The translations under genes were made by a program, and so were the position numbers. Positions 2,787 to 50,462 of a stretch of 64,000 bases of DNA are shown one piece after another (positions within the stretch are counted from its first letter, which is position 1; the number at the start of each line of letters is the position of its first letter). This stretch comes from Owenia fusiformis. Taxonomy: Eukaryota; Annelida; Polychaeta; Sabellida; Oweniidae. Where the stretch lies: contig CAIIXF020000007.1 of assembly GCA_903813345.2 (NCBI GenBank), positions 39,573,671 to 39,637,670 on the forward strand, in the 5' to 3' direction. Below the pieces are notes generated by a model. The model saw only the letters and a list, made by a program, of their open reading frames with translations, was not told where the DNA came from and searched no databases.

Positions 2787-4999
2787 CACCATTGTGTGAT
2801 CCACAGCAAGTTTTATCCTTTGGAATACCAAAGGGTTAGATAAAGTGAGACTCCGATAGATCTGAATGTCCCGACACGGGAATCAGAATGACAGAACAAA
2901 TATAATTTTGAATACCATGGCCAGAGACTAAATCTATGAATGGGAGGTAGGGAATCGCACAATTCTTTAATTCCAATGCTGCCCTTGTGTTTTATCAACG
3001 TTATACAATGAACGATGCAAACAAAACAGATCGTACAGTCGTAATGAAACTTATTCTAATTCTAATTCCTACATGAAATCTCACCACCAAAGACTGGTGA
3101 CATTTGAAAGACTTTATCCAAATCGTGTAATTCAAAAAAAACAAATCAAATCAAAATTAAAACATGCAAACATGTATATCTGCTTATGGAGGAATATCCG
3201 AGAAAATGTACATGTGTGACGCTGGTTTTCAGTCCCGGGTTTTCAGTCCTACATCGCCGCTTAATACCTGAAAAGCAACTAACTTATCTGCTTATTATAA
3301 GCATGGACCTATATTATAAGTTATCAAATAATTTAACAATGAAACAGAAACACAATGCATGCCAAACATTTATCTATATTATATTTTGTATTTTGCACTT
3401 GTATCGAGCAGCTGTGTAGGCAAGATTCACAAACTATATCTCCATGGGTTATAACTTGAAGAACGCCACTGACGGGTCTGTGCCCTTTAGGATGGGCCGT
3501 ATTGTTCTTGTTGGTATCTTACCCACGGGAACCTACAAAACAGAAAATATTTAATTACATTGTGAAGAGGAAGTCCTGTCTATATAAAACTCCCTAGAAT
3601 AAGATACAAGCAGTATAAACATCCATATTTGCAAAAATTTACGATAAACCACTGTCAGTTAGTAGTTGTAGTATCATATGCGTATAGCTTTTCGAAAAGT
3701 TGATAAAACGCAAAATATGATTGGAATATTTGCTGAAGTCTGGGATCGATGACCTGATAGAAATTGAGGGAAAGCGTTGAATCATAATAATTGAATGTTA
3801 GAGCAAAACAATAATAATTGCAATTTATGTTTATCATTACAATTATTCCCTGAAATCAAGAATAAAATGTTACTTTCTTTAGATACATGTATCTGTCGCA
3901 TTTGCTTAACCTGAAAGGCTAGTTCCGGGGGATAGTTTAGTCAAATTGACGAATTTCTAAAATGACAAATCATCATACTGCGAGTATCTTTTGATTCTTT
4001 TCCACAGAGGTACGCTGATATCCGATCTAATATCGTACTTCAATATTTTTGTTTTTACGAAATGGAAATAAGATCTTTTATGTAAACATCCGCATTTCAA
4101 ATTAATTTTGATATATCCTCAGATTATCATAGAATAATTCTGTGAATCCCAAGCACAACCCATTACAATTAAATGGTCTATCAGTCAATCTGTATTACAA
4201 CAAATGAATAACAATCCTGAAAATATTTCAAATATATTTGTCTTTGAATGTCGGAATAAAAATCATCGACGGTCCAACTTCAACGTACAATCTACGTGTG
4301 CGTACAGACATGATGACAGACTTATCATTTGTCCTCATTGTGATTTGCCCGTCTGAAAGATTATTTTATAAATTATGGTACAGAATGCTCTATAAAAGGA
4401 TTTCTACATTTTTAAAACGGCAATAATAGTTATTATTGAAAAAAAACTAGTTCTAAGTATACTTATTTATTGAATTGTTTCAAGAATATAACTTAATAGT
4501 GGACACAAGTTTTACCCGCTCAAAACATAATCTAACTCTCAAGAAATATTATTATGAGTTTATCGATGTTTTCTTGGATCCTCCGATGTACAGGTAAGTT
4601 GCACAATGCATTGATGTACACTGTACGCCGACAGAAATGCCGTCCCGATGACTTAGCCGATCGGCAGAACAATACCGATGGCGATGCCTATCGGAGTGTT
4701 TCCAAAAAAGAAAACACCGTGGATTATATACAATTTGAATTCAGTTACATGTTCTTGGTGTGTATTATGGATTTTTCAACTGATAAACTTACTACCAATT
4801 TATTCATTTAAAGTATCGAGCATAATTAGTGAGCCAATGATTAATTACGACCGCATACAGTATAATGGATATAAAAACGCCCAGTTCAATTACAATCTAA
4901 ACAAACTTGCTTTCATTTCGTGCTCACTGTGAATTCTACCGCTAAGCATATGTACAGTGCATACATGTATAAATTACAATCTGATAACTACATCGGTCG
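2787..4999. other. No gene supported
   Basis: Short open frames only. A 40-nt stretch at 4554-4593 (MSLSMFSWILRCT then ACAG|GTAAGT) has first-exon form and phase 1, but nothing links it to a gene. Confidence 0.5.
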
Positions 5000-5171
5000 T
5001 ATAGCGCATGCTAAGCGCTAGCTAAGCAGTAGAATCGCTGTCGCTGTGAGCACGAAGAGCGCTCGGCGTACAGACGAAGAGCGGGCGTGCAGCGGTCGCG
5101 ATGCACGCGTAGAGCAGCCGGCATCTCGACGGCATGGCATGGTGTGAGCTTTGAAAATACTTGTACTGTAG
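5000..5171. other. GC-rich block
   Basis: A sharply GC-rich stretch with many CpGs in an AT-rich region, with repeated GAAGAGCG motifs. Function not evident; it could be a repeat fragment or a CpG-rich promoter relic. Confidence 0.4.
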
Positions 5172-5230
5172 CGGCCCCCTCCCCTTGGCCAACAATTCTT
5201 TCAAGATCATGCAGTTTTTCACCATCTCGT
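5172..5230 (-). mobile_element. Internal fragment of the CAGGCCCGTAGCC MITE
   Basis: CTTTCAAGATCATGCAGTTT and TTCACCAT are the inverse of the body of the 20123 copy. No ends are present. Confidence 0.5.
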
Positions 5231-5363
5231 ACATGTATTGACATGTCAGAGCAAAATAAATAAAACTGTAATCCCCAAGTATTTAATTTCTATGACATGA
5301 GTTTTGTTTACTGATAACTAATCCGTTTGTTATGAATTAAAGGATTAATATTTACAGCCAATA

Positions 5364-6073
5364 GTTCAATTTGGCGCATTAGTACATCAATTTGGCGCAT
5401 TATTTATGATGTTCAAAATACATCATTATATTGAAAGATTAAACTTGGCTCATGAGTTTGTTTCAATTTGGGACATAGTATGTTATATGCTCTAAGTTCG
5501 TCAGTATATTAAAAAGTTCAATTCGGCGTATTATCATAGTTCAATTTGACGCGTTATTCATGATGTTCAAAGTACATCCTTACATTGAAAGGTTAAACTT
5601 GGCTCATGAGTATGTTTCAATGGGACATAGTATGTGATATGCTCCAAGTTCATCAGTATATTAAAAAGTTCAATTTGGCGCATTATCATAGTTCAATTTG
5701 GCGCGTTATTTATAATGTTCAAAGTACATCCTTACATTGAAAGGTTAAACTTGGCTCATGAGTATGTTTCAATGGGACATAGTATGTGATGTGCTCCAAG
5801 TTCATCAGTATAATAAAAAGTTCAATTTGGCGCATTATCATAGTTCAATTTGGCGCATTATTTATGATGTTCAAAGTACATCCTTACATTGAAAGGTTAA
5901 ACTTTGCTTATGAGCATGGTTCAATTTGGGACATAGTATGTGATGTGCTGTAAGTTCATCAGTATATTAAAAAGTTCAATTTGGCGCATTATCATAGTTC
6001 AATTTTGCGCGTTATTTATGATGTTCAAAGTACATCCTTACATTGAAAGGTTAAACTTGGCTCATGCACATGA
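5364..6073 (+). repeat. 153-bp satellite, left block (about 5 units)
   Basis: Tandem units of 152-154 bp each contain two CAATTTGGCGC motifs, a TTATGATGTTCAAAGTACAT stretch and TTGGCTCATGAGTATG. The block is interrupted by the foldback element. Confidence 0.9.
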
Positions 6074-9000
6074 GTTAGGTAGTGAGGTAGCACCGAAAAA
6101 TGTACCCGCTTCTGAACAAATTTAAATTACTTGTTTCTTATGTATTTTTATGTGATACTTCAGAAATTTTTTGTCTGATGCGCCATATCCGGGGCGAAAG
6201 TTGTCAAAATTGGGTTTTTGACCCTAAAAAGGAAAATTACAGGGGGTACATTAACATCATTGAATAATTCATTCAGTTAGTCTTCAATCATCATAATGAT
6301 TTTATTGAGAGTTGATGAGATCATTTTAAGGTAGTATGCAAACTTTCAATGGTCTGTTACTTGTGGTTGCCATGGAAACCACAATTTTTGCTGAGAAAAT
6401 CCTTAACTTTGGTAAAACCTGTACCTGTACATAATATAGAATGTGGATTATTTTTCAAATCAACAGATATCAGAACATTTTAGCACTCTAAGAATCACCA
6501 GGGCTGTCCAAACATTTGTTTAAAGAGAAAGAATATTGCAATTTATATGACTGGTAAGTGTCAAAGACCATACAATTACATAAGTGGTCAAAAGTGGGCG
6601 TCGCCCTCATAATAGTAGTTGATTGCCATTCTCTATAAATACAGAGTTTTACTTGACTTTTGAGACACATTTATATTGAATTTCTTTGGTTATACTAAAT
6701 ATCAAGCATTTTTACATCTAAGTGTTATAGTTATTGCATGGGGATACAGGGGGAGGGGGGAGGGGGGAGGGGGGGGTAGTAACAGAATTTGGAGGGGGCA
6801 GAGCTTATCGGCCTTAAGTGTAAATCTCATCTACATGGTTCTAGATTTCATAGGGTACAGCTTCTGGGTCTTATTATATTCATTTCAATATATAAGATAT
6901 AAGAATTTACATGGTTGATAAGTGTCAAAGACCATAGAATTACACATGTGATCAAAAGTGGGCGTCGCCCTAATCATAGTATATGGTTCATTCTCTATAA
7001 ATACAGAGTTTAACTTGACTTTTGAAGTACATTTACTTAAAAACATCTTTGATTTATACTTAATGTCAAGCATTTCTGGTAAGTTATATATGTACATCTA
7101 ATTGTAATAGTTATTGTCTGGGGGTGGAGGAGGGGGGGGGGGAGAGTAACAGAATTGGAAATGGGCAGAGCTAATAAGCCTTAAATGTAAATCTCATTTA
7201 TTTAGTTCTGGATTTCAAGGGGTGCATCTTCTGGGTCTTCTTCACATTCATCTCAATATATAGGATATTCCAATTTACATGATTGGTAAGTGTCAAAGAC
7301 CATACAATTACATAAGTGATCAAAAGTGGGTGTTGCTCTAACAATAGTAGATAATTCATTCTCTATGAATATGGAGTTTAACTTGACTTTAAGATTTATT
7401 TTTTAAATTAAAACCTCTTTCATTACTGTATAACACAATGTATTCGCGTGCATGATGAATTTGCGTAAATTCGCGAGGGTATGTATTCGCAAATTCATCG
7501 TGTAGCGAAATAAATATGTAGGCTACTAAGCCATAAAATGAAAATTGTTAAATGTGATGGCATACATTTAGTATTGTAATAGTTATTCCCTGTGGGGGGG
7601 GGGGGGCAAGGGGGTAGTAGCAGAAATGGGAGGGGGCAGAGCCAATGGCCAGTCAGTCTTAAGTATTAATATCACAGTCTGATCATTTTCATTCACCTCC
7701 CGATGTTAATATACTAACAATATCATGTGGGAGAATATACCACTACACTTGCAGATTTGAGAGTCATTCAGTTGAGTGTATCTTTATGGCGCTCCACCTT
7801 TGCCTTTTAAAAAGGTGCTATTGCTATTGCCCCTTCTGCATGGTACTTCATCTGTGAATGTGTGAAGTGCTAGGAAGGCTGCATATATGTCAGGGTCTAT
7901 ATTGGAGGAAATACCACTGACATCAGTCTTCATTTGTTTCCAACTCAAATATCCAGCAGCACGCTTTGCTGTATTTGCTTTTTGTTTTCATCATCATACA
8001 AGAACTAATTCCAATCTTTAGGGACTCATGTTTTTCTACCTAAAATAGGGCAAGGTGTCCCTCCCCTCTTTCAGGTTCCTTTATAGAATTTTTGATGTAA
8101 TTATCACATACAAAAACTAATCAATCTGCAATTGTAGAATCTTGAAACAGTCTCTGCCACATCCAGAAACAAAACTACCTTTCAAGTTGAATTATGGTTT
8201 GGGATAGTTGGGGTTTGTTTTCCTTATAACTTGTATACATTTAGAGGTTTTCTTTTTCTTGCTGGATTCTATTACAAATTTTGGTCCTTTCCCTTTGGCA
8301 CTTGTGGGTACATGTTCATGCGTAGGAATGCGTTTCTCTGTTCTTGCAAGAAGTCCAGTCAGTGTTCCTAGAGAGCCCAAGGCACAGGGCTCAATAGGAA
8401 CTGCAGGAGACATTCTAGGCTAATTTTATGTTCTTAAGCAAGATCAAAGCTGTTCAAAGATGTTTCATTCAGAATGTATTTGTATAAGCTTGTTCTGAGT
8501 ACTTTTTTACTGTCACTGTCACTGTTGCTGCTGTAGTTTGCTGCTATAGTTTTCAATTTCATATGTTTTATTAGATCATGAAATCTTTTTTTCAACTAAT
8601 CTCAGATGGTATCTCTTCATGCAATTTCCCCTTTTGACTAAAATTAGATGAGATCTGCAGCGACATCATTTGGCACAGATTTTCCTTATGATACACCGTA
8701 GAGATGACCTTCATCCTCAATGGTAAATGGATCAAGGAAGTCTTTGATTGCGGTTTTTGTCATCTTTATGTCTTTTTCTATACTTGCTATTTGTGCCTTT
8801 CCAAGGTCATTATGGGTGTCACGCTCATCTCATCTCTAGATAATAGATTTTTGTAACCATCTCATCCATATAAATTACTTATTGTCTGTATGGCCCATAT
8901 TGCAAATCCTCGTAGTGAACCACCAGATGGACCTGAATGGAAACTAAATGACTCCATATCTTACCAGTGGGTATTGACTGATATTCTCATACAAGAGATT

Positions 9001-10534
9001 GGTGATATAGCAACACCAGGAGATGAATCAGAAAACTCCAGAAGATGTACCCTATGAAATCCAGAATCAAAAAGATGAGATTTATACTTAAGGCAGATTA
9101 GATCTACACATTCTAATTCTGTTACTACTCACCCCTGCCTAAATGTAAAAACTATAATACTTACACAGATGTATTTACCAGAAATGCTTGACATAAATTA
9201 TAATAACAGCAGTTCAGTATAACTATGAATGTATCTCAAAAGTCAAGTTCAATTTTGAATTTATACAAAGAACCAATCATCTACTATTGTTAGGGTGACA
9301 CTCCTTTTGATCATTTATAAATATGTAATTGTATGGTGTTTGACAAATCCTGTAAATTGTAATATCCCATATATTGAGATGAATATGAAGAAGACCCAGA
9401 CGATGTGCCCCATGAAATCCAGAACTATGCAGATGAGATTTATACTTAAGGCTGATTACCTCTGCCTCCTCCCTATTCTGTTACTACTCTCCCCCATCCT
9501 CCCCCAGGCAAGAACTATTACAATTAGATGTGCATTACTAACCAGAAATGCTTGAAATTAAGTATAATCAAAGAAGTTGTAATGTAAATGTATCTCAAAA
9601 GTCAACTTAGACTCTGTATTTATAGAGAATTAATCTATGATAAGGGCGACGCCCACTTTTGATCACTTGAGTAATTCTATGGTCTTTATACTTACCAATC
9701 ATGCAGAATTATAATATCCTATATGAATGTGAAGAAGACCCAGAAGATGTACCCCATGAAATCCAGAACTATGTAGATGAGATTTATACTTAAGGGTGAT
9801 TAGCTTTGCCCTCTTCCAATTCTGTTACCCCCCCCCCCCCCCCATCTACCCCCTCCCCAATGCAATAAGTATAACACTTACATGTACATTATTTACCAAA
9901 AATGCTTCATATTTAGTATAACCAAAGAACATCATTATAAATGTATCTCAAAAGTCAAGTAAAACTCTGTATTTTTAGAGAATGGCAATCATCTAGTATG
10001 ATAAGGGCGACGCCCACTTTTGATCACTTATGTAATTGTATGGTCTTTGACACTCCCCAGTTATGTTAATTGCAATATCCTTTATATTTAAATAAATGTT
10101 TGAACTGCCCTGGTAATTTTGAAAATGCTAAAATGTTCTGATATCTGTTGATTTGAAAAATAATCCACATTCTATATTATGTACAGGTACAGGTTTTACC
10201 AAAATTAAGGATTTTCTCAGCAAAAATTGTGGTTTCCATGGCAAACATGAGTGACAGACCATTGAAAGTTTGCATACTACCTTAAAATGATCTCATCAAC
10301 TCTCGATAAAATTATTATGATGATTGAAGACCAACTGAATGAATTATTCAATGATGATAATGTAACCCCTGTAATTTTCCTTTTTAGGGTCAAAAACCAA
10401 ATTTTGACAACTTTCGCCCCGGATACGGCGCATCAGACAAAAAATTTCTGAAGTATCACATAAAAATACATAAGAAACAAGTAATTTCAATTTGTTCAGA
10501 AGCGGGTACATTTTTCGGTGCTACCTCACTAACT
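6074..10534. mobile_element. 4.46-kb foldback (FB/TU-like) element inserted in a satellite
   Basis: The two ends are near-identical inverted copies: outer arms about 6074-6500 and 10110-10534, beginning TAGTGAGGTAGCACCGAAAA. Inside each arm is a tandem run of about 368-bp subrepeats (left starts near 6545, 6914 and 7282, with a partial copy near 7560). Right-hand copies between about 9020 and 10060 are in inverse orientation. Each subrepeat has a G-run of 9-13. The middle (about 7780-8900) is single copy. Terminal arms built from tandem repeats are the hallmark of Drosophila FB and sea-urchin TU elements. The same 153-bp satellite continues on both sides, so the element inserted into the array. 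Confidence 0.8.
7784..8860 (-). pseudogene. Decayed ORF in the centre of the foldback element
   Basis: Coding-like pieces on the minus strand are interrupted by stops. They include KMTKTAIKDFLDPF followed by YGVS-stop-GKSVPNDVAADLI; KKRFHDLIKHMKLKT; an open piece ending near 8192 (PTSAKGKGPKFVIES); and LSWKQMKTDVSGISSN running to a stop at 7784-7786. The DPF...SGKSVPNDVAADL pattern recalls ORFs of unknown function carried by invertebrate transposable elements. That resemblance is from memory. No transposase catalytic motif was seen. Confidence 0.4.
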
Positions 10535-12335
10535 AAGTATATTTCAATTTGGGACATAGTATGTGATGTGCTGTAAGTTCATCAGTATATTAAAAAGTTC
10601 AATTTGGCGCATTATCATAGTTCAATTTTGCGCGTTATTTATGATGTTCAAAGTACATCCTTACATTGAAAGGTTAAACTTGGCTCATGAGTATGTTTCA
10701 ATGGGACATAGTATGTGATGTGCTCCAAGTTCATCAGTATATTAAAAAGTTCAATTTGGCGCATTATCATAGTTCAATTTGGCGCGTTATTTATGATGTT
10801 CAAAGTACATCCTTACATTGAAAGGTTAAACTTGGCTCATGAGTATGTTTCAATTTGGGACATAGTATGTGATGTGCTATAAGTTCATCAGTATATTAAA
10901 AAGTTCAATTTGGCGCATTAGTATAGTTCAATTTGGTGCATTATTTATGATGTTCAAAGTACATCCTTACAATGAAAGGTTAAACTTGGCTCATGAGTAT
11001 GTTTCAATTTGGGATATAGTATGTGATGTGATTCAAGTACATCAGTATATTAAAAAGTTCAATTTGGCGCATTAGTATCGTTCAATTTGGCGCATTATTT
11101 ATGATGTTCAAAGTACATCCTTACATTGAAAGGTTAAACTTGGCTCATGAGTATGTTTCAATTTGGGACATAGTATGTGATGTGCTCAAACTTCATCAAT
11201 ATATTAAAAAGCTCAATTTGGCGCATTAGTGTAGTTCAATTTGGCGCATTATTTATGATGTTCAAAGTAAATCCTTACATTGAAAGGTTGAACTTGGCTC
11301 ATGCGAGTATGTTTCAATTTTTGACATAGTATGTGATGTGCTCAAACTTCATCAATATATAAAAAAGCTCAATTTGGCGCATTACGGTAGTTCAATTTTG
11401 CGCATTATTTATGATGTTCAAAGTACATCCTTACATTGAAAGGTTAAACTTGGCTCATGAGTATGTTTCAATTTGGGACATAGTATGTGATGTGCTCAAA
11501 CTTCATCAATATATTAAAAAGCTCAATTTGGCGCATTAGTGTAGTTCAATTTGGCGCATTATTTATGATGTTCAAAGTAAATCCTTACATTGAAAGGTTG
11601 AACTTGGCTCATGCGAGTATGTTTCAATTTTTGACATAGTATGTGATGTGCTCAAACTTCATCAATATATAAAAAAGCTCAATTTGGCGCATTACGGTAG
11701 TTCAATTTTGCGCATTATTTATGATGTTCAAAGTAAATCCTTACATTGAAAGGTTGAACTTGGCTCATGAGAGTATGTTTCAATTTTTGACATAGTATGT
11801 GATGTGCTCAAACTTCATCAATATATTAAAAAGCTCAATTTGGCGCATTAGTGTAGTTCAATTTGCCGCATTATTTATGATGTTCAAAGTACATCTTTAC
11901 ATTGAAAGGTTAAACTTGGCTCATGAGTATGGTTCAATTTGGGACATAGTATGTGATGTGCTCAAACTTCATCAATATATTAAAAAGCTTAATTTAGCGC
12001 ATTAGTGTAGTTCAATTTTGCGCATTATTTATGATGTTCAAAGTAAATCCTTACATTGAAAGGTTGAACTTGGCTCATGAGAGTATGTTTCAATTTTGGA
12101 CATAGTATGTGATGTGCTCCAAGTACATCAGTATTTTAAAAAGTTCAATTTGGCGCGTTAGTATTCATCAATTTGGCACGTTTTTTATGATGTTCAAAGT
12201 TCATCCTTACATTGAACGGTTAAACTTGGCTCATGAGTATGTTTCAATTTGGGACTTAGTATGTGATGTGCTCTCAGTTCAATAGTATATTAAAACGTTC
12301 AATTTGGCGTGTTAGCATAGTTCAATTTCGGGCAT
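10535..12335 (+). repeat. 153-bp satellite, right block (about 12 units)
   Basis: It is the continuation of the left block. From about 11150 to 11780 a two-unit block (about 309 bp) is duplicated, marked by paired variants such as AAGTAAATCC and CATGCGAGTATG, so a dimeric higher-order repeat is forming. Confidence 0.9.
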
Positions 12336-12480
12336 TAAGAACATCATAAATAACGCACCAAATTATACTATACTAATGCGCCGAACTGAACCTTTTAATA
12401 TACTGATGAACCTACAGCACATCACATACTATATCTCAAATTGAAACATACTCATGAGCCAAGTTTAACCTTTTTAACCA
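12336..12480 (-). repeat. Inverted terminal unit of the 153-bp satellite
   Basis: The last unit lies in the opposite orientation (AACATCATAAATAACGC through ACATACTCATGAGCCAAG), making a palindromic array end. Confidence 0.8.
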
Positions 12481-14150: not shown

Positions 14151-34114
<19,964 letters not shown>

Positions 34115-39410: not shown

Positions 39411-40499
39411 TCATTGTTGTGGACCTACGCTAGATGAATGGTGTGCCTTGCACCTGCACAAGACAACACGCCTCATACCTTTATTCAGTTCTTTGATCCT
39501 AAAAGCATAAATCCATGGATTCATAGACCATAGGAGCAATCTAAAAAACATGTTCAGAAGTTCCCAAAATTCATTGTCGACACGAAAAATCCATATTACA
39601 AGTATAATGAACGTCCCAGGCAACCAGCATATTGTAAACAGTGCAACTACTATAGTCATAGTTTTCAGCAACTTAATTTCTTTCGCATATGCGACTGCAA
39701 GAGTGTTATGAACTACACTTAGTGCATGGATATGCTTGGAGCGTTGTTTGACTGCAACAGTTGCCACAACAATATGGGAAACCAGGATGATCAGAAAAAG
39801 AACAAAGATATGGGCATTCAAGAAAATCAAGTACTCACGCCTAAACACTTGTTTCCCACATTTTTCGCTAAATTCGTCAAAGGGGACAATCCGTTTGTAG
39901 AACATGAAAGACGAGACAACAACGGGATAAAGCCAACTAAGTGCAATAAACCACAATACACGAGAGCGTGTTACAATCTCTTTGTATCTTAAGGGCCTTG
40001 TTACCGCAATGTGGCGATCTAAAGCAATGCCACCCATGCTGAAAAGAGATGTACCTAATAAACATATATTTAAGAAATTCGTGACGATACAAATATATTC
40101 ATTTCGTATAACCCCAAATATGAGTGGGGTCATATATCGACCGATTGTGTAAAGTGGCAGAACCACCGCCCCGATACAAAGGTCAGACACCGCTAAACTC
40201 ATTAGCAACATGTTGTTCGCTGTACGGAGGGGTTTAAATGTAATGATACTTACTATTACCAGAACATTTCCCCCACATGTAAACAAAGATAGAAAAGAAC
40301 TGATTGTTATCATGACTATCACGAAAGACTCGAATGTTAGCGATTCATGATTCTGTGATGAATTCGAAACTTCAGTGAAATTTTTCACAGAAGCAATCGT
40401 TGCTGTTGATACATTATCACTTACACTTTCAAAGCGCATGTCTTTCATTTTGGGTTTGTAATAATGAGATGAACTGACGTACAGGTATAATCCAAGCAA
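39411..40499 (-). CDS. Class A (rhodopsin-like) G protein-coupled receptor, intronless
   Basis: One 362-residue open frame with seven hydrophobic helices. The landmarks are in order: GGNVLVI (TM1, N1.50), LAVSD (TM2, D2.50), Cys in YICIV (3.25) able to pair with Cys in SEKCGK (ECL2), DRH in place of DRY at the end of TM3, CWLP (TM6) and NPWIY (TM7). Position 3.32, counted from Cys3.25 and Arg3.50, is Asn, so the amine-binding Asp is absent. The N-terminus carries several N-x-S/T sites and no signal peptide. Translation may start at the first Met or at Met18 (MKDMRF, near 40448). The short tail has a Cys pair (CRCK) that could be palmitoylated. The ligand is unknown. The ALDRHIAVTRPLRY stretch recalls the adenosine/melatonin/amine branch. 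Confidence 0.92.
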   Translation of the reverse strand: MLGLYLYVSSSHYYKPKMKDMRFESVSDNVSTATIASVKNFTEVSNSSQNHESLTFESFVIVMITISSFLSLFTCGGNVLVIVSIITFKPLRTANNMLLMSLAVSDLCIGAVVLPLYTIGRYMTPLIFGVIRNEYICIVTNFLNICLLGTSLFSMGGIALDRHIAVTRPLRYKEIVTRSRVLWFIALSWLYPVVVSSFMFYKRIVPFDEFSEKCGKQVFRREYLIFLNAHIFVLFLIILVSHIVVATVAVKQRSKHIHALSVVHNTLAVAYAKEIKLLKTMTIVVALFTICWLPGTFIILVIWIFRVDNEFWELLNMFFRLLLWSMNPWIYAFRIKELNKGMRRVVLCRCKAHHSSSVGPQQ

Positions 40500-40613
40500 G
40501 ATGTTCTCGAGAAAGACATTTACAAAATTTTAAAAATAAGTCTTATACTCCCTGACGCACATGTGCTTGCTCATAATGAAATTTGAATATTTGTCCGTGT
40601 TCAATTACTCAGA

Positions 40614-45232: not shown

Positions 45233-48200
45233 CTGAAAATGAAATGATATTACGTACAGGTGTAGGTGAAACCAACAAGTTAAGCTACAGAATTTTACGT
45301 TTTACTTTAAAACGTATACGTATATGTGTAGAGCCCCTCCATTAGGTAATTCCTTTTTATTTCTAACTCATCGCAGTCATATTTTAACTATCTTAATAAA
45401 GGAAAACTTAAGATTCAAAGAATAGCAAGGTTTACCTCGTACACTGGAGAGGTTAAGCAAATACGGTTTTTCAAAACGTATACGTAAACGCAAAGTACAT
45501 TGAATCAACATAGGATTGTATCGCTTTAGTCTACTTCAGATACCCGTTCAACTTCAAAGTTGCGTGTTTAGAACGGGAGTTTTTAATTTTTCACGTTGCT
45601 ATCAACGGGAATCATTATACTCATGTCTGTTGAATACTATCCTTGCAATTTTGATTTCGATGCAGAGTATAATTCTTTCTGAAGAAGATGATGTATGTTA
45701 CGCATGATTTAACTCCAATAATCTTACGAAACGAGCTCGTTTAAAATATGTATTAGAAAACCAGCTATTAAACTTCATCAATGGGATACTATGTAATCAT
45801 TACAAGCTATGGTGTAGTCTAAACAAACACTAGTGCTGAACGGCTATTTATGTGTGAACTCTACATGTATTTGTATAGGGCCGATTGATACGTTTAAGTT
45901 GCGTTCTGGATTTTATACGGTAGCTTAACCTCTCCACTATCAACTTTTAAGGTTGCCAAACGTATTGAGGGGCATGAATATACGTTATAGTAAGCTATAC
46001 TATCGACCAGAACGCAGGGGCTCAGCGTTCAGCTAGGCCACAAGTTCCTTACTTGAAACCCTGCGTTAGGAGGATGAATTGCATCGTACTTACGTTAAAT
46101 CCATTCAACGATGAATTAGTTGTGGTTTGAGAGGATGTCGTACTTTTTGTCATTCCTCCTGGAAGCTCCGATCCTGTTGTAGCATTTATGTTGGCTATTG
46201 TTGTATTAACATTATTAGCAATAATCGTTCCTGTGGTTGAAGCACCAGCAATTGTAGGGCCCGTACCTGTCGGACCAGCATCTGTGGTGACTGTTGGACC
46301 CGCAGCTGTTGTCGTTGTAGGACCGGCACCTGTTTGACCCGCAGCTGTAGTCGTTGTAGGACTGGCACCTGTTGGACCCGCAGCTGTTGTCGTTGTAGGA
46401 CCAGCGCCTGTTGAACCCGCAGCTGTAGTCGTTGTAGGACTGGCACCTGTTGGACCCGCAGCTGTTGTCGTTGTAGGACCAGCGCCTGTTGAACCCGCAG
46501 CTGTAGTCGTTGTAGGACCAGCACCTGTTGGACCCGCAGCTGTAGTCGTTGTAGGACCGGTACCTGTTGGACCCGCAGCTGTTGTCGTTGTAGGACCGGC
46601 AGCTGTAGGACCCGGAGCTATAGTTGTTGTAGGACCAGCACCTGCAGGACCCGCAGCTGTAGTTGCTGTACTATCAGCAGTTGTAAGACCCGCAGCTATA
46701 GTTGTTGTAGGACCAGCAGCTGTAGAACCTGCTATAGTTGTTGTCACGGCTAAAGTTGTTGTATCAGCTGCAGTTGTTGTCATAGCAACAGTTGTTGCAT
46801 CAGCCTCAGTTGTTGTATCAGCGTCGGTTGTTGTATCAACTGCACTGGTTGTTGTAAACAAAGCGGTATCCACCAATTCACAGTCGGAGGCATTATAACA
46901 ATAATTTTGGGCCACATCCTCGTCAACCAAGCCGTCTCCGTCATCATCATACGGCGCCTAAAAAGTACAAGTTAAACACTCATCAGAGTGAGATTGCAGT
47001 ATGGGTCTGTATTTTGTAATCGTGTAACATCCAAAAGAGGTAGTCAACAACTACTTCAATGTGTTTTTATTTAGGGCCGGTGTTATAAAGCTGAAATGAG
47101 TTTTATATACTTTGATTTACTACAAATGGTGTTTGAGACCAAAGGAAAAATTAAACTTTGCAATAGTTTGACTTAACTTGTTAAAAATGAGCTTCGTCTT
47201 CAGTTTAGAACTCCAGTATGCTCTGCGCTCAGGGCAATGTTTGTTCGGTATACGTTTGGATACTTACATTAGGCGTGTAGAGTTCCTCATCTATTCGCCC
47301 ATCGCAGTCATTGTCGATTCCATCGCCAAGCACAGTAGGAGTTGGAGTACATGGTAGTGCAATTGGTGCTAACCTTTGGCCACCTTGAATTGGCAACAAT
47401 AAAGTCACGTTACATAGTGCATTTTAGATTTAAAATTGTGATGCATGCATATTATAATGTATTGTTATATAAAATAGTATTATATCATAACATATTATAT
47501 TGTATTATAATCTATAATATCACATTATATAATATTATATTATATTATTCTTCATGCAGTTAGTTGCATCATAGTAGTGTTTATGTGGTGATGGCATCTT
47601 GGTAATCAGGTAAAGCAAAAATTCGCTTTAGAGATTTGTATTTTCCTATAAAGGCCGATCCAGAAGTTCTGATAAAAAGTTAGGGCATTTTTATCAGGAC
47701 TTCTGGATCGGCCCTTGTATAATTTCGTTATGAGAAACGATGTTAATGGGCGTAGCCAAGCACGAGACAGACGTGACAAGTGCCTCGGAAAATAGTATTC
47801 TTCAACAAAAGAATGGAAACGAAGTCAAAAGGTAGTAATATGCCTCCTTTAGTCCTTTACCTCGCCCATTAATTTTGCTTTGCCTGAATTAAGATCCTGG
47901 CTACATCCCTGTTGTAAGTATACAAAGGAAAATGCAACACTACAAATAATGATTCATTTGGACAAACAATATATTATACCTGTGTATCCATATGACTCGT
48001 ACTTGACGACACCGTGTATCATAAAGGCAAACGAAACTGTTGGGTTTGTATGGTAAAGCGTATGTGTCCCGTCAACGACCTCATACTGCATAATCGAGTA
48101 TGACGTACCATCCGCGTCAAGCTCGTACCAGTCGACGCCAGAGAGAGTGTCGCCATCTAGGATCAATCCCGATATTGCGTCTGTGTTGATGATAACGTTG

Positions 48201-50462
48201 ATCATCTGTTGATATGGTGCTGCGATTAGAATTGCAGATTTGGCAGTGGCAAATGTATAAATACTGTCGTACTGTTCCACAGGTGGGATGATCGTCATAA
48301 AAGGATCCGAGTCTACACCATCTGCCGCGGCGCTCTTACTGAAAAGTACCACCAATGAGGGCTTGGTGCATACGATGTGGCAATACACGGGTGTTGAGTT
48401 GGTATCGATTTCTCGGACATCTCCCTTATTAAGTGTTACGGTATCAACGATGGTGGCGTTTCCTGAACAATTATACGTGATTGTATTAGCGTCAGCACCG
48501 GAGACTATCCTCAGAATATCACCCCCTGTTCTCTCCATTAACGGCGCCGTGATAAAAACCTTTCCCCATGTTTTAGCCGGTGGTATATGCTCCACTAGAT
48601 GGTCACTGCTTCCAGTAACCGCGTCTGTGACCGCAATGGACTGCCGTGTACTCCCCGAAAACAGAGCTACGGGGTTGTTCGACTCCAGCTCTAACCCAGT
48701 CAGATCCGTCGTTGCACTTACTTGGTACGTTTGGAAGCTTTCTAGCGTAAAAGATACCGTCTCGTTGGCTGTATCATTGAAGTATGACACGGTGGTATTG
48801 TCATATGCCGCAACAACACAAAACGCAAAGTCTCCCATCGTCGGTTCAGCGCCAACAACAATATTTTCCGTACCAAGGGCATCTATCGGGAGCACTAAAA
48901 ATCCATCAGCTGTTAAGAATTCTTTGTTCAGTGCGTAAACGACAATTTCAGCTGTAGAAGAGATGTAAACTCCCTTATCTGAAACGGTGGAATCCTCGGA
49001 CATCTCTAGGTCATGTGATATTGTCACATTGATGACAGAACCTGGAATCATTATACTTTTTATGACAATGTTATGAATTTCTCAATTTATTGAATTCGTT
49101 TGAAATACCGTGACATTGATGATACCAAAAACACTATTGATAGAGAGGTTAAGCAACATCATTTTATAGCGTGGACCGCAAACGTAAACCCATACGTTCT
49201 GTTTACGTTCTCTGAACAAAAGTGCTTTAAGCTGAGCACTTTATAAACCAAGGAAACATTAATTATAAAATGATTTTTACCTTTTTGCTGTGTTCATATT
49301 TCTACTTTAAAATAATAAAGATGAATGTGATGTTTCCCAGACTGACAATGTTTATAAGTTGATTAAGTAGCCGTTGGCCGACATGTGGTGATAATAGGTA
49401 AATTTGGTCTTCCTTGTAAAATTGTTATGAATGCTATTTAATTCACAAAATCCTACCTTTTGTTATTACCAGATTGCGTTCGTCAACAATTCCAGCTGAC
49501 TTTGGCGATGTTACATTTACGAAAACATCTTCATCGGACTGCGTTGTAATAAACAGAAGTTTATCCAAATTTGGGACGTAAGCAATTTGTTCTTGCAACA
49601 AAGGATTCTCCATGAAGACCAATGCGAACTCCGTTCCTGAATTATCCAGTGCTCCTACGAATAAAACAAATTAAATTGATTGTTTCTAATCCCAAAACAA
49701 GTTTGAAATAGATTAATTGATTGTTTGTTGCTTTGTTTGTTTGATTGGTGGATTGATCTTTAGATTTGTGATAATTTCTAAATGAGATGATATTAAAACC
49801 TACCATTTGTGCCACGCAGAAGAAAAACAAATGCCATCAAAATCAAATGCATTTTCTGATATATTTTCTCATTCATATTTTTTTTATTATCTAGTGTAAA
49901 ATATTTTTGTTTTAGAAAATATATGAAAAATACTGTGCTATCTAAACGTCATAATTATGGTCAAATTTCTTCCGTGGTCGAAATGCTTCGATTTAATTTG
50001 CTTCTGAGGAGGAAACCTCCGATCGCCGGATAACAAGGTTTGCATTTAAAGCTATTAAAGTTCACACCTCTGGATAGCAAATATACATTTTCAGTTTTGG
50101 GTTGTTTAAGGCTGAAATGAATTGTAGGCTTCACGATCATATTGTAGTTGTTTGACCATATGTAAATAAAACGAAAATAATTTACTCCAAAGTTACTATG
50201 GTTAAATATTAGTTTGTTGGTGACCATGACTAGAATCCGTTTCCAGAAAATAATGGAATGAAATTTATTCACTGAAGTTTATATTACGAAACGGAGGTTT
50301 AGACTAGTTGTCGGATCTTGACTTTAATAAAGTTTCGAGGTTATACCAACTTAAAATGATTAAATTGTGTGTAGATGTCAATCTATATAAAAATTAACAC
50401 CTACCCATTTCACTGGCCACCATTAAAAGCAGAAATAGACAACGCATCAGTTTAGTTGTCAT
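44417..50462 (-). CDS. IgGFc-binding-domain transmembrane mucin (complete gene span)
   Basis: Exons on the minus strand are 50405-50462 (signal peptide), 49457-49654, 47980-49041, 47268-47383, 46094-46957 and 44417-45232. Lengths sum to 3114 nt (1037 residues), and every junction phase agrees (1,1,1,0,0). In order the protein has: a signal peptide; an IgGFc-binding-protein N-terminal domain (family PF17517 by pattern: GTEFALVFMEN, LLFITT, HIPPAKTWGK, GGDILRIVSG); two Asp-rich loops (DGIDNDCDGRIDEE and DDDGDGLVDED); a Thr/Gly/Pro mucin stalk; one TM helix; and a Ser/Pro/Ala tail. Invertebrate IgGFc-domain proteins are often surface or mucus proteins. The ligand is unknown, and IgG binding itself is a vertebrate property that should not be assumed. 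Confidence 0.88.
45527..45690 (+). repeat. Interspersed repeat, copy 1
   Basis: AGTCTACTTCAGATAC through TTTGATTTCGATGCAGAGTA is shared with 61133-61252. It lies in the last intron of the IgGFc mucin. Confidence 0.6.
46094..46957 (-). CDS. Exon 5 of IgGFc mucin (second Asp loop and mucin stalk)
   Basis: An 864-nt phase 0 exon between CTTTTTAG and AAC|GTAAGT. It opens with APYDDDGDGLVDED, then a Thr/Ala/Asp stretch, then about eleven 13-residue repeats of the PTGAGPTTTTAAG type (39 bp each, roughly 46250-46640). These are a likely O-glycosylated stalk. Without splicing the frame would stop after FILLTQGFK near 46049. Confidence 0.85.
47268..47383 (-). CDS. Exon 4 of IgGFc mucin (DxDNDCDG loop)
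   Basis: A 116-nt exon, phase 1 in and phase 0 out (AAT|GTAAGT). It encodes a Pro/Thr linker and DGIDNDCDGRIDEE, a calcium-binding-type Asp loop common after IgGFc domains in invertebrate proteins. Confidence 0.8.
47446..47557. repeat. TA-rich low-complexity tract
   Basis: Runs of TATTATAT-type sequence in an intron of the IgGFc mucin. Confidence 0.7.
47651..47716. mobile_element. 66-bp near-perfect hairpin
   Basis: GGCCGATCCAGAAGTTCTGA and TCAGGACTTCTGGATCGGCC pair around a short loop. Confidence 0.65.
47980..49041 (-). CDS. Exon 3 of IgGFc mucin (main IgGFc-binding domain)
   Basis: A 1062-nt phase 1 exon between GATTCCAG and ACAG|GTATAA, coding 354 residues. Family-like motifs include DFAFCVVAAYDNTTV, NPVALFSGSTR, the HIPPAKTWGK block and the closing VKYESYGYTG. 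Several N-x-S/T sites are present. Confidence 0.9.
49457..49654 (-). CDS. Exon 2 of IgGFc mucin (start of IgGFc-binding domain)
   Basis: A 198-nt phase 1 exon between ATTCGTAG and AAAG|GTAGGA. It contains GTEFALVFMEN and KLLFITTQSDED, the opening strands of the domain. Confidence 0.85.
49804..49852 (-). CDS. First exon B: alternative signal peptide of the IgGFc mucin
   Basis: ATG at 49852 reads MHLILMAFVFLLRGTNG and ends in phase 1 at AATG|GTAGGT, 149 bp upstream of the next acceptor. It has the same phase and job as exon A but no internal acceptor, so it would be used from a second promoter rather than spliced after exon A. Confidence 0.6.
50405..50462 (-). CDS. First exon A: signal peptide of the IgGFc mucin
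   Basis: ATG at 50462 reads MTTKLMRCLFLLLMVAS, a basic n-region and Leu-rich core, and ends in phase 1 at ATGG|GTAGGT. It joins in frame to exon 49457-49654. Confidence 0.75.

What the first reader, a model, noticed from the sequence alone, without database searches (positions are those of the whole stretch)
6074..10534. FB/TU-type foldback transposon with tandem-repeat arms inside a satellite
The element has unique outer arms, about 368-bp subrepeats in opposite orientation on each side, G-runs in each subrepeat, and a single-copy core with a decayed ORF. It split a 153-bp satellite that resumes on the other side. Foldback elements this large are rarely described outside a few model animals.
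Basis: partly seen in the sequence, partly recalled or inferred. Interest (0 to 1): 0.75.

Follow-up and report, generated by a model that had tools for sequence, protein, structure and literature searches.

The report
Foldback-shaped Academ transposon family, recently amplified
This is a real, recently spread jumping-DNA element with long mirrored, internally repeated arms; it looks like the classic foldback elements of flies and sea urchins but most likely belongs to a different transposon lineage (Academ), so the shape seems to have evolved more than once.

Summary
The element is 6076-10535 (4460 bp), flanked by AGT on both sides, with 1.3-1.5-kb inverted arms: a unique outer part and three ~360-bp subrepeats per arm. 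Its exact ends occur 88 times in a 498-Mb animal genome, forming 39 facing pairs on the 12 largest contigs. Of these pairs, 38 have a perfect 3-bp target duplication and one a 4-bp one. Thirteen cores differ by 2.0% on average, so the burst was recent. An assembly inversion is excluded.

The label FB/TU is wrong: such foldbacks make 8-10-bp duplications. The core carries, on the minus strand, a decayed stretch of a transposase gene (profile match 2e-18). Intact relatives in the same genome end in TAGT and make 3-bp duplications (six loci); one protein was modelled and has an FEN1/XPG/XRN-type nuclease domain. These are marks of AcademX transposons. Best reading: a non-autonomous, foldback-shaped Academ family moved in trans. 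The flanking 'satellite' looks like the internal array of another dispersed repeat. New variant of a known kind; no paper in the library holds both 'Academ' and 'foldback'.

The parts
6073..6075 (.). left target duplication AGT
6076..10535 (+). whole element, 4460 bp; ends 5'TAGGTAGTGAGG (left) and 5'TAGTTAGTGAGG (right, reverse complement)
6076..6511 (+). left arm, unique outer part (element 1-436)
   Evidence: 40 of 41 listed matches of the outer-arm query cover nearly all of it at 97-100% (itself included)
6512..6877 (+). left subrepeat L1 (limits approximate)
6878..7243 (+). left subrepeat L2 (limits approximate)
7244..7725 (+). left subrepeat L3, partial and decayed, interrupted by the 138-bp insert; inner limit approximate
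7424..7561 (+). 138-bp dispersed repeat (MITE-like) nested in this copy; missing from the eight other copies aligned there
6590..6607 (+). most conserved block of the subrepeat (AAAAGTGGGCGTCGCCCT), candidate binding site; exact also at 6954-6971 and, inverted, at 10004-10021 and 9643-9660 (4 of 6 units); degenerate at 7322-7339
7726..9019 (.). core between the arms
7972..8832 (-). decayed transposase remnant; profile positions 753-1040 of 1363, with stops
9020..9384 (-). right subrepeat R3 (limits approximate)
9385..9724 (-). right subrepeat R2 (limits approximate)
9725..10097 (-). right subrepeat R1 (limits approximate)
10098..10535 (-). right arm, unique outer part
10536..10538 (.). right target duplication AGT

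Best explanation
A non-autonomous cut-and-paste DNA transposon of the Academ superfamily (AcademX-like), with foldback architecture. Shown: a discrete element with fixed TAGG/TAGT ends and 3-bp (once 4-bp) target duplications, spread to 39 places with both ends exact, carrying a decayed stretch of an Academ-like transposase gene on its minus strand; coding relatives in the same genome with TAGT ends and 3-bp duplications, one with an XPG-type nuclease domain. Inferred: a related Academ transposase acts in trans, binds the outer ends and repeated sites in the ~360-bp subrepeats, excises the element and inserts it with a 3-nt stagger; the arms lengthen and shorten by unequal exchange or slippage between subrepeats. 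In the window it landed at AGT inside the tandem array of another dispersed repeat, and a small MITE-like element later landed in it.
For: Ends and duplications: 88 exact ends, 0 control hits. Of 39 pairs with both ends exact, 38 have a 3-bp and 1 a 4-bp duplication; the same comparison slid 1-14 bases gave 0-3 of 30. Remnant: hmmsearch iE 2.1e-18 in the window; no hit at E<=1 among reversed copies of the ten sequences searched; tblastn E 1.4e-9, 8.9e-11 and 2.1e-11 for three relatives. Relatives: TAGT ends with duplications AAG, TAC, TCA, AAA, TTG and AAT (checked). Nuclease: model pTM 0.72; the 22 best PDB matches are all XRN/Rat1, flap endonuclease, T5 exonuclease or XPG entries. A passage of PMC10045372 says AcademX makes 3 or 4-bp duplications and ties the two Academ lineages to helicase and nuclease. 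33 of 64 listed matches of a 47-aa remnant frame sit in a frame of the same 47 aa, which suggests that the copies spread already broken.
Against: No Repbase Academ protein could be aligned here, so the superfamily name rests on duplication length, nuclease fold and recalled knowledge of Academ. Pfam gave no hit for six frames of a relative. Only 2 PDB matches of the nuclease model reach E 0.001, with TM-scores of 0.27-0.39 by query length among the 22. The transposase-domain model was poor and matched nothing, so no DDE/D core is shown. The remnant is weak in one sister copy, L032 (best iE 0.024). No coding copy with this family's own ends was seen; nine copies were read in full, the others only by ends or partial stretches, so the trans source is unidentified. 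The repeated GGGCGTCGCCC block is not in the coding relatives L037, L040, L111 or the C6 element.
Confidence: 0.86

Rival explanations
1. FB/TU (Mutator-like) foldback element.
For: Same architecture: long inverted arms with tandem subrepeats around a middle domain.
Against: 3-bp duplications in 38 of 39 pairs; Tetris has 8-10 bp and Tm1 8-10 bp, most often 9 (passages). The coding remnant matches Academ-like proteins.
Confidence: 0.03
2. Another 3-bp-duplication superfamily (CACTA/EnSpm or PIF/Harbinger) whose copy captured a piece of an Academ gene.
For: 3-bp duplications also occur there (recalled); 9 of 29 duplications fit TWA.
Against: Ends are TAGG/TAGT, not CACTA; 13 different 3-mers among 29 duplications; the same TAGT ends and 3-bp duplications are on the coding Academ-like elements; the remnant is collinear over about 290 profile positions.
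Confidence: 0.07
3. Segmental duplication or assembly inversion rather than a transposon.
For: Large inverted repeats are a known place for assembly errors.
Against: 39 pairs of exact ends at separate places with 3-bp or 4-bp duplications; left and right arms differ at 12 diagnostic columns (chosen for at least 75% agreement) and no copy examined swaps arms.
Confidence: 0.01

Closest known systems
AcademX DNA transposons (Academ superfamily)
   Same: 3-4-bp target duplications; nuclease domain in a coding relative; TAGT ends shared with the coding relatives here.
   Different: This family has no intact coding copy seen here and has 1.3-1.5-kb internally repeated foldback arms; two coding families here have 0.5-0.7-kb arms, one element 5.0-kb arms. 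Arm lengths of published AcademX families were not looked up.
Galileo (P superfamily) of Drosophila
   Same: Foldback-like long arms with tandem repeats in a non-Mutator superfamily; repeat number differs between arms and copies; secondary transposase sites in the repeats (abstract of PMC3688188; passages of PMC3573991).
   Different: P-type THAP transposase; 7-bp flanking sequences in the passages of PMC3573991.
FB elements, Tetris, Tm1 (mostly Mutator superfamily)
   Same: Arms with unique ends and tandem subrepeats around a middle domain.
   Different: 8-10-bp duplications (Tetris, Tm1; 9 bp for FB itself is recalled) and different transposases.
TU elements of sea urchin
   Same: Large foldback shape (recalled).
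   Different: Duplication length recalled as 8 bp; not looked up.

Membership tests
FB/TU-type (Mutator-like) foldback | long inverted arms with tandem subrepeats | tested here: met
FB/TU-type (Mutator-like) foldback | 8-10-bp target duplication | tested here: not met
   3 bp in 38 and 4 bp in 1 of 39 pairs with exact ends
FB/TU-type (Mutator-like) foldback | Mutator-like transposase | tested here: inconclusive
   six remnant frames give no transposase family in Pfam at E up to 10 and the remnant matches Academ-like proteins; no Mutator protein was compared directly
AcademX | 3 or 4-bp target duplication | tested here: met
   rule from a passage of PMC10045372
AcademX | transposase with XPG-type nuclease domain (XPG type recalled) | tested here: met
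   met in one coding relative; in the window element only a decayed stretch remains, up to about the start of that domain
AcademX | DDE/D catalytic core | tested here: inconclusive
   model pLDDT 57, no PDB match at E<=0.001
AcademX | sequence relation to curated Academ proteins | not testable with these tools
   no Repbase copy; no Pfam match for six frames of a relative
CACTA/EnSpm | CACTA/CACTG termini (recalled) | tested here: not met
   ends TAGGTAGTGAGG / TAGTTAGTGAGG
PIF/Harbinger | fixed TWA target (recalled) | tested here: not met
   13 different duplications, e.g. CCA, CTC, GAT, TTT; 9 of 29 fit TWA

The most novel reading that the evidence does not exclude
Academ transposons repeatedly turn into foldbacks, including a possibly self-sufficient one: a 13.5-kb element on C6 (duplication AAT) whose 5.0-kb, 99.9% identical arms each carry the first part of the transposase gene, with the rest in the 3.5-kb middle. 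Multi-site, repeat-bearing arms would then be a general convergent solution for transposase specificity (Mutator, P and now Academ) rather than a quirk of Drosophila.
Probability: 0.35. Interest if true: 0.55.

Novelty: new variant of a known kind. Interest (0 to 1): 0.42.

Why it matters
Foldback structure is best known from Mutator-type elements and from Galileo (P superfamily). A recent, many-copy foldback family with Academ hallmarks would be an independent case, with coding relatives in the same genome to test the idea that repeated subterminal sites serve transposase binding. Such arms are also expected to promote hairpins and ectopic recombination, hence rearrangements, as Galileo does in Drosophila (titles and abstract starts in the listing).

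Tried and rejected
Pfam on six remnant frames gave three matches below their curated cut-offs, none a transposase, and on six frames of the relative L031 none at E<=0.1. Sequence search of solved structures with the C-terminal profile gave six matches at E 0.32-0.94, three of them Exonuclease 1; the fold comparison is stronger. The transposase-domain model was too poor to use. C6:35365930-35393985 looked like a 28-kb autonomous element, but the fetched ends are one ordinary copy with about 23.8 kb inserted at element position 3126-3128. Arm conversion was tested on the two copies with TAGT at both ends: the left arm of each keeps left-arm letters at the other 11 of 12 diagnostic columns, so a point change fits better. 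The copy at C5:474923 has an altered end and no 3-bp duplication. A weak form (4 mismatches) of the repeated block is in both arms of locus L110, but none in the six other loci of coding relatives searched (L031, L035, L036, L037, L040, L111); undecided. Literature: no paper in the library holds both 'Academ' and 'foldback' as whole words (the narrower one search also gave none); AcademX occurs in one paper; I saw no Academ in the titles or abstract starts of the 30 of 86 foldback papers listed. Kojima 2020 on AcademH is not held.

Full report
What is there. The finding describes a real object. The element runs from 6076 to 10535 (4460 bp) and is flanked by AGT on both sides. Its arms are inverted copies: 639 nt at 94% without gaps and about 1.3 kb at 85% with gaps. 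Each arm has a unique outer part of about 437 bp and then three subrepeats spaced 356-366 bp apart, the innermost being decayed. Across nine full copies, 3 to 5 subrepeat-like stretches per arm were detected; four-run G motifs occur in the right arm of 9 of 9 and the left arm of 8 of 9, against 0-0.005 per strand in composition shuffles.

It is a family. The outer-arm query has 41 listed matches, 40 over nearly its full length at 97-100% identity, itself included; only 40 of 295 candidates were scored. The core query has 47 listed matches; 33 align over at least 1.3 kb at 92-100%, itself included (40 of 1602 candidates scored). The exact ends occur 88 times, with none for the reversed control. 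By position these make 39 facing pairs and ten single ends. The pairs lie 3.8-6.4 kb apart except C6:38494077 (2.3 kb), C6:35365930 (28 kb) and C4:25128900 (38 kb). Of the 39 pairs, 38 have identical 3-bp flanks and one a 4-bp duplication, ACTA: 29 and 1 of 30, 8 of the 9 pairs, and TGA at C6. The ninth pair, C5:474923, has an altered end and no duplication and is not among the 39. Sliding the comparison by 1-14 bases gives 0-3 matches of 30. Thirteen cores differ by 2.0% on average, 1.0-2.7%. At 12 diagnostic columns, chosen for at least 75% agreement, left and right arms of nine full copies keep their own letter in all but seven of 216 cells; one exception is in the window's left arm. So copies spread as whole units.

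What it derives from. On the minus strand of the core, 8832-7972 matches profile positions 753-1040 of 1363 of a profile made from six intact proteins of the same genome (iE 2.1e-18), with stops; ten element sequences were searched and none of their reversed controls matched at E<=1. The best match is strong (iE 9e-14 to 5e-19) in six of the ten, weaker (7e-6 to 1e-8) in three, and only 0.024 in the sister copy L032. Direct protein searches agree (best E 1.4e-9, 8.9e-11 and 2.1e-11). A 47-aa frame of the remnant has 64 listed matches, 33 of them in a frame bounded to the same 47 aa. This suggests that the family spread already broken and was moved in trans.

Coding relatives. L037, L038 and L039 are 6.43-kb elements with about 520-bp arms, ends TAGTGGAATGGG and duplications AAG, TAC, TCA; L037 has a 1526-aa ORF. 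L111 is of the same kind, with AAA. L040 with L109 has 674-bp arms, ends TAGTGCAGTCAG, duplication TTG and a 1429-aa ORF. A 13.5-kb element on C6 (37684700-37698240) has 5.0-kb arms, ends TAGTATAGTAGG and duplication AAT; its arms carry the first part of the transposase gene, which is read there as several frames. A sister copy of the window family, L032, ends TAGTATGTGAGG with duplication TTT. So the elements of this group whose two ends were resolved here start TAG and make 3-bp duplications, apart from the altered copy and the 4-bp copy named above. L033, L034 and L110 did not have both ends resolved.

Nuclease domain. The C-terminal part of the L037 protein was modelled with moderate confidence (pLDDT 73.8, pTM 0.72). 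The first 22 PDB matches are all XRN/Rat1, flap endonuclease, T5 5' exonuclease or human XPG entries. Two reach E 0.001, and TM-scores are modest, 0.27-0.39 by query length and 0.17-0.50 by target length. A passage in PMC10045372 (passages only) says AcademX elements make 3 or 4-bp duplications, AcademH 9 or 10, and relates this to the helicase and nuclease they encode; that the AcademX nuclease is of XPG type is recalled. The 3-bp rule with one 4-bp case and the XPG-type domain fit AcademX. The catalytic DDE/D core could not be shown.

How it likely works. Shown: ends, duplications, spread, remnant, coding relatives. Inferred: a related Academ transposase binds the ends and cuts and pastes the element. 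The best conserved block of the subrepeat, TGATCAAAAGTGGGCGTCGCCCT, has its AAAAGTGGGCGTCGCCCT part exact in 4 of 6 units of the window element and recurs exactly in L032, L033 and L034. It is a candidate repeated binding site, by analogy with Galileo, whose tandem repeats contain THAP binding sites (abstract of PMC3688188). This block was not found, at up to 4 mismatches, in L037, L040, L111 or the C6 element, so the analogy is unproven.

Known or new. FB/TU membership fails on duplication length. Tetris and Tm1 have 8-10 bp (passages). Galileo already showed that foldback shape can arise in the P superfamily (passages), and the Tetris paper cites the view that it can arise from different lineages (passage). 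No paper in the library holds both 'Academ' and 'foldback'; the library lacks most subscription papers and Repbase reports, so this family may be listed in Repbase. The genome (498 Mb, twelve contigs of 32-62 Mb by the lengths) resembles Owenia fusiformis (505.8 Mb, 12 chromosome-scale scaffolds; passage of PMC9977687); this is a guess, not a test.

The surroundings. The 152-154-bp array that the element split is not a classical satellite: the listed part of 308 matches falls into short clusters at dozens of places on all twelve large contigs, and 3 of 4 other arrays fetched share the window's left flank 5169-5367. It is best seen as the internal array of another dispersed repeat. The array here ends at 12339-12473 with one inverted unit.

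Noticed in passing
5169-5367, 5363-6066, 10536-12337, 12339-12473: The '153-bp satellite' is a short array at dozens of dispersed loci; 3 of 4 other arrays fetched share the left flank, and here the array ends with one inverted unit. Probably the internal array of a separate mobile repeat.
   Followed up: partly
7424-7561: 138-bp dispersed repeat nested in this copy; 10 other places listed in the genome, 7 of them at 97-100% over nearly full length.
   Followed up: partly
L035+L031+L036 (C6:37684700-37698240): Academ-like element with 5.0-kb arms, 99.9% identical, carrying part of the transposase gene in each arm, duplication AAT; possible coding foldback or a recent inverted duplication.
   Followed up: partly
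L028:734-1359 (C7:25763533-25764158): 626-bp, nearly palindromic deletion derivative of the family (arms only), with duplication ACC.
   Followed up: partly
L026/L027 (C6:35365930-35393985): Copy of this family interrupted by about 23.8 kb at element position 3126-3128, with a possible 3-bp duplication; the inserted DNA was not read through.
   Followed up: partly
L030, first 700 bases: Inserted sequence inside the sister copy on C4 contains a stretch reading like a GIY-YIG (Penelope-type) endonuclease; recognised by eye only.
   Followed up: no
39414-40529 (-), 47957-49081 (-), 17623-18231 (+): Ordinary gene pieces: rhodopsin-type receptor, IgGFc-binding domain, laminin-type EGF, the last beside tandemly repeated exon-sized units.
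   Followed up: no
27701-29680: Tandem array of a 32-bp unit, about 61 copies.
   Followed up: no
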